From NCBI RefSeq assembly GCF_036030735.1, contig NZ_CP107928.1, positions 9,672,001 to 9,736,000 on the forward strand: a stretch of 64,000 bases of DNA, in the 5' to 3' direction. Made by a program: the position numbers and the translations under genes. Origin of the DNA: Streptomyces sp. NBC_00425. Lineage in GTDB: Bacteria; Actinomycetota; Actinomycetes; Streptomycetales; Streptomycetaceae. The notes under the pieces are model-generated. The model ran no database searches, had not been told where the DNA came from, and was given only the letters and a program-made list of their open reading frames with translations. Below, in pieces: positions 36,301 through 64,000 of this stretch (position 1 is its first letter; every line of letters starts with the position of its first letter).

Positions 36301-39300
36301 CCAGGGCCTGCCCGCCACCTCCCTCGCCTGGGGACTGTGGGACCAGGCAGGCGGCATGGGCTCCGCGTTGAGCGCAGCGGAACGGGACAGGCTCGCGGAG
36401 ACCGGCACCTGCGCGTTCACCGCAGAGCAGGGCCTCGCCGCCTTCGACGCCGCCCTCGGCCACGCCCGGCCGATGCTCGCCGTCCTGCCGATGAACCCCG
36501 CCGCGCTGCGGGCGCGCGCCGGACGCGGAACGCTGGCGCCGATCCTGAGCGGCCTGGTCCGCACCCCGGTACGCCGCCGCGCCGCGGCGGGCGCCGCCGG
36601 CGGTCCGGGCGCGGCCACGCTCGCCGACCGCCTGGCGGCCCTGCCCGGCGCCGAACAGGAGCAGCTGCTGCTCGACCTCGTCACCGACGAGGTGGCGGCG
36701 GTGCTCGGCAGGTCGGGCGGGGACCTCGAAGCCGGCCGCACCTTCAAGACGCTCGGATTCGACTCGCTGTCCGCCGTCGAACTGCGCAACCGGCTCGGCG
36801 CGGCGACCGGCCGCCGGCTCTCGCCGACCCTCGTCTTCGACCACCCCACCCCCGCCGCTCTCGCCACGCATCTGCGCGACGCCCTGCTCGGCAACCGCCC
36901 CGCCGCCCCGGTGCGCACCACACGGCAGGCCCCGGCCCCAGCCGACGACGACGCCATCGCCATCGTCTCGACGGCCTGCCGTTTCCCGGGCGGCGTGGCC
37001 TCGCCCGAGGACCTCTGGCGGCTCCTGCAGGACGGCGTCGACACCATCGGCGACTTCCCGGCCGACCGGGGCTGGGACCTCGACGCCCTCTACGACCCCG
37101 ACCCGGAGTCGACCGGCACCTCGTACACCCGCCAGGGCGGCTTCCTGCGCGACCCGGCCGGCTTCGACGCGGAGTTCTTCGCGATCAGCCCGCGCGAGGC
37201 CCTCGCCATGGACCCCCAGCAGCGCCTGCTGCTGGAGACGTCGTGGGAGGCGCTGGAGCGGGCCGGGATCGACCCGGGCACGCTCCGCGGCAGCGACACC
37301 GGTGTCTTCGCCGGCGTCATCACCGGCGACTACGTCACCCGTCTCGGCCGGCTCCCCGAGGAGCTGGAGGGATACGTCTCCACCGGCACGACGACCAGCG
37401 TCGCCTCCGGACGCATCGCCTACACCCTGGGCCTGGAAGGCCCCGCGCTCACCGTCGACACGGCCTGCTCGTCGTCGCTGGTCGCGCTGCACCTGGCGGC
37501 GCAGGCGCTGCGCAACGGCGAGTGCGCACTGGCCCTGGCCGGCGGCGCGACCGTCATGGCCGGGCCGGTGAACTTCGTCGAGTTCAGCCGCCAGCGCGCC
37601 CTGTCCGCCGACGGCCGCTGCAAGGCGTTCTCACAGGACGCGGACGGCACCGGCTGGGGCGAGGGCGTCGGCCTGGTGCTCCTGGAGCGGCTGTCCGACG
37701 CCCGCCGCAACGGCCACCCCGTCCTGGCCGTCATCCGCGGCAGCGCCGTCAACCAGGACGGCGCCAGCAACGGCCTGACCGCCCCCAACGGGCCCTCGCA
37801 GGAACGCGTGATCCGCCAGGCGCTGGCGAACGCGGGTCTGACCGCCGCCGACGTGGACGCCGTCGACGCGCACGGCACGGGCACCAGGCTCGGCGACCCC
37901 ATCGAGGCACAGGCCCTGCTGGCCACCTACGGGCAGGAGCACACCCCCGAACAGCCGCTGTGGCTGGGCTCGCTGAAGTCGAACATCGGCCACACCCTGG
38001 CCGCCGCCGGCGTCGCCGCCGTCATCAAGATGGTGCTGGCGATGGGGCACGAGACGCTGCCGCGCACCCTCCACGTCGGGCGCCCGACCGAACACGTCGA
38101 CTGGGACGGCGGAGCCGTCGAGCTGCTGACCGAGGAACGGCCCTGGCCCAGCACGGGCCGCCCGCGCCGCGCGGCCGTCTCCTCCTTCGGGTTCTCCGGC
38201 ACGAACGCGCACCTGATCCTGGAACAGGCGCCCGGGCAGGGGACGCCCGAGGCGACGGACGCGACAGGACCCGCGTCCGCGGCCGAGTCCGCTGCCGCCG
38301 AGGATGCGGCCGCTGCGCAGGCGGCTGCGGCTGTGGTGCCGTGGGTGCTGTCGGCCAAGACCCCCGCCGCGCTGCGTGAACAGGCCGCCCGCCTCGCCGG
38401 GTTCACCGCCGATCGCCCCGACGTGGACATCGCCGCGATCGGCTCGTCGCTGATCACCACCCGTGCCGCGTTCGCGCACCGCGCCGTGGTGGTCGCGAGC
38501 GAGCGCGAGGAACTCGCGAGCGCACTGTGCGGCCTCGCCGCAGGCGACGTCCCCGCCCCGGCCGTCACCGGTGAAGCCGCCTCGGGTCGGACGGTGTTCG
38601 TGTTTCCGGGGCAGGGGTCGCAGTGGTTGGGGATGGCGGCGGGGTTGTATGCGCAGGCGCCGGTGTTCCGGGCCCGGTTGGAGGAGTGTGCGCGGGCGTT
38701 GTCCGAGTTCGTGGAGTGGGATCTGCTTCAGGTGCTGCTGGGGGAGGGCGACGGCGCTCTGTTGGAGCGGGTGGATGTGGTGCAGCCGGCGTTGTGGGCG
38801 GTGATGGTGTCGCTGGCTGAGTTGTGGCGTTCGTTCGGGGTGGCGCCGGATGCGGTGGTGGGGCATTCGCAGGGGGAGATCGCGGCGGCGGTGGTGGCGG
38901 GTGCGTTGTCGCTGGGGGACGGTGCGCGGGTGGTGGCGTTGCGCAGTCGGGCGATCGTGGCGTTGGCGGGGCGTGGGGGGATGGTGTCGGTGGCGTTGCC
39001 GGTGGAGCGGGTGCGTGCGGTGGTGGGGCGGTGGCCGGGTCGGGTGTCGGTGGCGGTGGTGAACGGTCCGTCGTCGACGGTGGTGTCGGGTTCGTGTGAG
39101 GTGTTGGAGGAGTTGGCGGGGTTGTGGGAGGGGGAGGGGTGCGGTGGCGTCGGGTGCCGGTGGATTATGCCTCGCATTCGCCTCATGTGGAGGTGTTGGA
39201 GGAGGAGTTGGCGCGGGTGTTGGAGCCGGTGGCGCCGCGGGTTCCGGTGGTGCCGTTGTATTCGACGGTGTCGGGTGAGGTGGTGGCGGACGCGTCGTTG

Positions 39301-64000: not shown

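What the first reader, a model, noticed from the sequence alone, without database searches (positions are those of the whole stretch)
38582..61902. One identical -1 frame break in three identical AT-domain copies
Three 1,024-base AT copies (38582, 54589, 60879) each lose frame at the same GGGG run, then continue as a perfect conserved AT in the -1 frame. I see no other break in over 40 kb of PKS coding DNA, so random error is unlikely. Options: (a) a systematic homopolymer undercall shared by copies whose reads cannot be told apart; (b) a real deletion spread by gene conversion, which would cripple PKS J and N; (c) recoding by slippage on GGG. Option (a) is most likely, but the threefold recurrence deserves a direct look.
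Basis: partly seen in the sequence, partly recalled or inferred. Interest (0 to 1): 0.7.

Follow-up and report, generated by a model that had tools for sequence, protein, structure and literature searches.

The report
Homopolymer assembly error in duplicated PKS
The three matching frame breaks are almost certainly sequencing undercalls: the same gene cluster sits a second time at the other end of the linear chromosome, and there all three copies are in frame.

Summary
Three identical 1,024-base AT copies each lose frame at the same GGGG run. The cause is very probably not biological. The window lies in one arm of a ~135-kb terminal inverted repeat, so the whole cluster is present twice. The other arm holds the same three AT copies with one more base in the run, and all three read through. 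The arms differ at 12 places; 9 are one-base length differences in G/C runs whose longer version is 5 or 6. The left arm has its own PKS break at another G run, where the right arm is in frame. A second PKS outside the repeat has four near-identical ATs; two have lost bases at G6 runs. In the 9 run differences where frame, sister copies or hairpin symmetry show which version fits, the longer run fits in 9 of 9 (7 of 7 distinct sites). That is the signature of homopolymer undercalls left in repeats.

The parts
38582..39605 (+). AT copy 1 (1,024-base repeat), frame break at the GGGG run 39136-39139
54589..55612 (+). AT copy 2, frame break at 55143-55146
60879..61902 (+). AT copy 3, frame break at 61433-61436
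30287..42528 (+). PKS gene holding AT copy 1, seen here as two overlapping frames (30287-39418 and 39124-42531); in the left arm the same AT lies in one open frame of 4,089 aa
49828..64000 (+). PKS gene holding AT copies 2 and 3 (start taken from the frame scan; it runs past the window end), seen here as three frames; in the left arm both ATs lie in one open frame of 4,136 aa
52455..52462 (+). C-run of 6 (approximate place) where the left arm has 5 and breaks frame while this arm is in frame
1..64000 (.). whole window is part of the right arm of the ~135-kb terminal inverted repeat (G000:C1:9672001-9736000; the arm starts at about 9670148)

Best explanation
The three breaks are consensus errors of the assembly. 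The gene cluster lies in a ~135-kb terminal inverted repeat, and the AT segment occurs six times in the genome (three per arm). A long-read consensus tends to drop a base in G/C runs of 5-6, and reads from repeats cannot be placed uniquely, so such errors survive polishing there. The right-arm copies carry the dropped base, the left-arm copies do not. Shown: the two arms, their differences, the frames, and the same kind of error in a second repeat family. Inferred: the sequencing platform, the polishing history and why one arm took all three errors.
For: Left arm: same three ATs, longer run, in frame, each 1-317 of PF00698 at 306.7 bits. The arms differ at 12 places over 135 kb: 9 one-base G/C-run lengths, one synonymous substitution, and one substitution plus one 12-base block within the first 270 bases. 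All 9 lie in runs whose longer version is 5 or 6; 475 runs of 5 or more in the arm, 66,951 shorter ones. Both arms have a PKS break at different runs: left at 80856 (window 52460), right at the three ATs. Second PKS: copy A short by one base in two adjacent G6 runs, copy D in one, relative to in-frame copies B and C. Longer version fits in 9 of 9 judgeable cases: 3 ATs and window 52460 by frame, 2 hairpins by symmetry, 3 in the second PKS by frame and sister copies. By my count, 5 of 52 AT domains are split, all 5 among the 10 members of the two near-identical families (3+3 and 4). None of 56 full-length KS rows and none of 150 listed ABC-transporter rows (150 of 310 candidates were scored) is split. 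21 of 21 AT matches from five other genomes read the site in one frame. The Polypolish abstract (PMC8812927, seen in the listing) states that long-read assemblies mostly retain homopolymer-length errors and that these often remain in repeats after short-read polishing.
Against: No reads and no record of platform or polishing were available. All three right-arm copies are short and all three left-arm copies long; if three errors fell at random on six copies, such a split has odds of 2 in 20, so it is mildly unexpected without a cause tied to arm or orientation. The orientation rule is mixed: some judgeable undercalls lie on G runs of the + strand, others on C runs. The frame scan of 635 kb of other DNA left 8 candidates that I picked by eye and could not settle, several beside a C or G run, so single-copy DNA is not shown to be clean; and the scan missed both second-PKS breaks.
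Confidence: 0.93

Rival explanations
1. A real one-base deletion arose in one right-arm AT copy and was spread to the other two by gene conversion within that arm, leaving the left-arm cluster intact at these sites.
For: The three copies are identical over 1,024 bases, so conversion among them is plausible, and the split is exactly by arm.
Against: The arms differ almost only by G/C-run lengths, not by the substitutions that real divergence would bring. The left arm has its own frame break in the same gene, so both copies of the cluster would be broken. The same kind of loss occurs in an unrelated repeat family, in two adjacent runs of one copy. Two conversions would have to stay within one arm while the arms are otherwise nearly identical.
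Confidence: 0.05
2. The short run is real and the ribosome or RNA polymerase slips on it to restore the frame.
For: A run of G is slip-prone in principle (recalled), and the downstream frame is conserved.
Against: The left arm encodes the same protein directly. 21 of 21 AT matches from five other genomes do so too, four of four in G013 with five Gs before TG at this place. No paper on slippage in a PKS was found in the one search made for it (one paper, on another subject by its title and abstract).
Confidence: 0.01
3. Two sub-populations of the strain differ at these runs, and the assembly shows one in each arm.
For: Runs of G can vary in length in cultures (recalled).
Against: The same pattern at 9 different runs in the arms and 3 in the second PKS, at least some of which break frame, would need many unlinked variable sites.
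Confidence: 0.01

Closest known systems
Residual homopolymer-length errors of long-read assemblies in repeats (as described in the Polypolish abstract, PMC8812927; listing)
   Same: One-base losses in G/C runs of 5-6, inside DNA with near-identical copies.
   Different: Platform and polishing of this assembly are unknown; the split by arm is not explained.
Programmed -1 frameshifting or transcriptional slippage (recalled)
   Same: Break lies on a run of one base and the next frame is conserved.
   Different: Not needed: sister copies and relatives encode the protein in one frame.
Gene conversion between AT domains of modular PKS (recalled)
   Same: Explains the 1,024-base identity of the three AT copies.
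   Different: Does not by itself explain the missing base; the left-arm copies share the identity but not the break.

Membership tests
Consensus homopolymer error in a repeat | Change of length in a run of one base | tested here: met
   9 of 12 arm differences, all in runs whose longer version is 5 or 6
Consensus homopolymer error in a repeat | Site lies in DNA with near-identical copies | tested here: met
   135-kb inverted repeat and three AT copies per arm
Consensus homopolymer error in a repeat | Unique DNA largely free of such breaks | tested here: inconclusive
   0 of 56 full-length KS rows and 0 of 150 listed ABC rows split (many KS rows lie in the repeat too); 8 unsettled candidates in 635 kb
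Consensus homopolymer error in a repeat | Reads show another run length than the consensus | not testable with these tools
   no reads held
Acyltransferase domain of type I PKS (PF00698) | Match to the Pfam model over its length | tested here: met
   two contiguous pieces, 1-178 and 178-317, in each window copy; 1-317 in one piece in each left-arm copy
Programmed -1 frameshift | Short form conserved in relatives, with recoding needed for the product | tested here: not met
   21 of 21 AT matches from five other genomes and the three left-arm copies are in one frame
Programmed -1 frameshift | Full-length product from the short form | not testable with these tools
   needs proteomics

The most novel reading that the evidence does not exclude
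A real deletion was copied by gene conversion through all three AT domains of one chromosome arm, so that the strain carries a diploid cluster with one arm decaying, a case of concerted decay confined to one arm of a terminal inverted repeat.
Probability: 0.04. Interest if true: 0.5.

Novelty: not a real feature. Interest (0 to 1): 0.12.

Why it matters
It warns that apparent frame breaks in repeated PKS domains, and in genes inside terminal inverted repeats, may be consensus errors. Comparing the two arms of such a repeat is a cheap internal control: it shows the errors directly, without reads. If the breaks were taken as real, this cluster would be wrongly called inactive.

Tried and rejected
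Recoding was rejected because intact copies in the other arm and in other genomes encode the protein directly. I tried to show that single-copy DNA is free of breaks with a codon-usage frame scan of 635 kb in 33 stretches. It mostly flagged overlapping genes; I picked 8 of its rows by eye and looked at their translations without settling them; some look like decayed or fused genes. The scan also missed both AT breaks of the second PKS, so its silence proves little. A test for one orientation rule gave a mixed result. A context test found 5 of the 9 arm differences in the context GA-run-T, against 24 of 475 runs of 5 or more; this context was chosen after seeing the data and the three ATs are not independent (3 of 7 distinct sites), so I put no weight on it. 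The 275-aa gene beside the PKS was used to find relatives of the cluster; the locus (L001) holds only AT types 33-36% identical to ours, so it was no help at the site. Paper searches for the assembly by its length found nothing relevant. Five-term and six-term searches on Streptomyces, nanopore, homopolymers and frameshifts gave 0 and 2 papers, a four-term one 8, and one on terminal inverted repeats 1. None was opened; I saw listings only. The identity of the product was not pursued.

Full report
Observation. The three AT copies at 38582, 54589 and 60879 are identical over 1,024 bases, and each has GGGG at 39136-39139, 55143-55146 and 61433-61436. Up to the run the AT frame has third-position GC of 0.89; after it the AT continues in another frame with 0.84. 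PF00698 is matched in two pieces, positions 1-178 and 178-317, in all three. A codon-usage frame scan flagged no further break inside the window.

Where the window lies. It is G000:C1:9672001-9736000 of a single contig of 9,805,310 bases. The first 135,166 bases of the contig match the reverse complement of the last 135,163, after which the match ends. This is a terminal inverted repeat of a linear chromosome, and it contains the entire window except a part of its surroundings.

The two arms compared. They differ at 12 places. Nine are a one-base difference in the length of a G or C run; in all nine the longer version is 5 or 6. One is a synonymous substitution at window 1717. The remaining two, a substitution and a 12-base block, lie within 270 bases of the chromosome end, as does one of the nine runs. 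The three AT sites are among the nine: the left arm has one more base at each, and the AT is in one frame there, with full-length PF00698 matches inside open frames of 4,089, 4,136 and 4,136 aa.

Which version fits. At the three ATs the left arm is in frame. At window 52460, just after another AT, the right arm is in frame (run of 6) and the left arm (run of 5) is not. At two hairpins outside the window (left 19241 and 66747) the left arm has symmetric arms and the right arm has lost one base, which puts a bulge in the predicted fold (energies -44.8 against -37.7 and -54.3 against -47.2). The other three run differences cannot be judged. In all six that can, the longer run fits.

The same thing elsewhere. 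A second PKS at 1.50-1.62 Mb has four near-identical ATs. Two are split. Aligned, copy A is one base short in each of two adjacent G6 runs and copy D is one base short in a G6 run; copies B and C are in frame. That adds three more cases in which the longer run fits, making 9 of 9, or 7 of 7 if the three identical ATs count once. From the 57 rows I count 52 AT domains, 5 of them split; all 5 are among the 10 members of the two near-identical families, none among the other 42. No split is seen among 56 full-length ketosynthase rows or 150 ABC-transporter rows (150 of 310 candidates scored).

Relatives. With the left-arm AT as query, 72 matches were found in the window, the left end, the second PKS, four other stretches of this genome and six stretches from five other genomes. 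Sixty-five span the site in one frame; the seven partial ones are the six halves of the three window copies and one piece of the split second-PKS copy. All 21 matches from the five other genomes span it; one has an extra residue there. In G013 four of four have five Gs before TG at the aligned place.

Interpretation. One-base losses, G/C runs of 5-6, DNA with near-identical copies, different losses in different copies: together this is what unresolved homopolymer undercalls in repeats look like. The abstract of the Polypolish paper (PMC8812927; seen in the listing, paper not opened) describes such errors and their survival in repeats. That this assembly was made from long reads of that kind is inferred. 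Why all three errors are in one arm is not explained; with three errors on six copies a split by arm has odds of 2 in 20 by chance, and a consensus caller that treats identical context in the same orientation alike would make it likely, but the orientation of the other errors is mixed.

Limits. No reads are held. The frame scan of 635 kb of other DNA left unsettled candidates and missed the second-PKS breaks, so I do not claim that single-copy DNA is clean. A real deletion spread within the arm by gene conversion remains possible at a few percent; it would leave both copies of the cluster broken, since the left arm has its own break in the same gene.

Noticed in passing
window 1-64000 and G000:C1:1-135166: A ~135-kb terminal inverted repeat carries a whole hybrid modular PKS cluster with one NRPS module (C-A-PCP, 43521-46667), so the cluster is present twice per chromosome.
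   Followed up: partly
G000:C1:80856 (window 52460): Left arm has its own PKS frame break at a G run where the right arm is in frame.
   Followed up: yes
G000:C1:1599225-1600435 and 1613540-1614750: Two of four near-identical ATs in a second PKS are short at G6 runs and split in frame.
   Followed up: yes
window 1717: The only substitution between the arms outside the chromosome ends; synonymous, and the window base equals that of the paralogous AT at 51882.
   Followed up: partly
G000:C1:94-269 and the matching right end: The two chromosome ends differ by a substitution, a run length and a 12-base block within 270 bases of the end.
   Followed up: no
window 42623-43447: A 275-aa gene next to the NRPS module has no match in NCBIfam or Pfam at E 0.001 but relatives in 35 of 295 genomes of the genus searched, the own genome included.
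   Followed up: partly
window 1124-1548 and 51289-51713: Another AT pair is identical over 425 bases, with a third copy near 32090 (93% over 300 bases); no frame break there.
   Followed up: no
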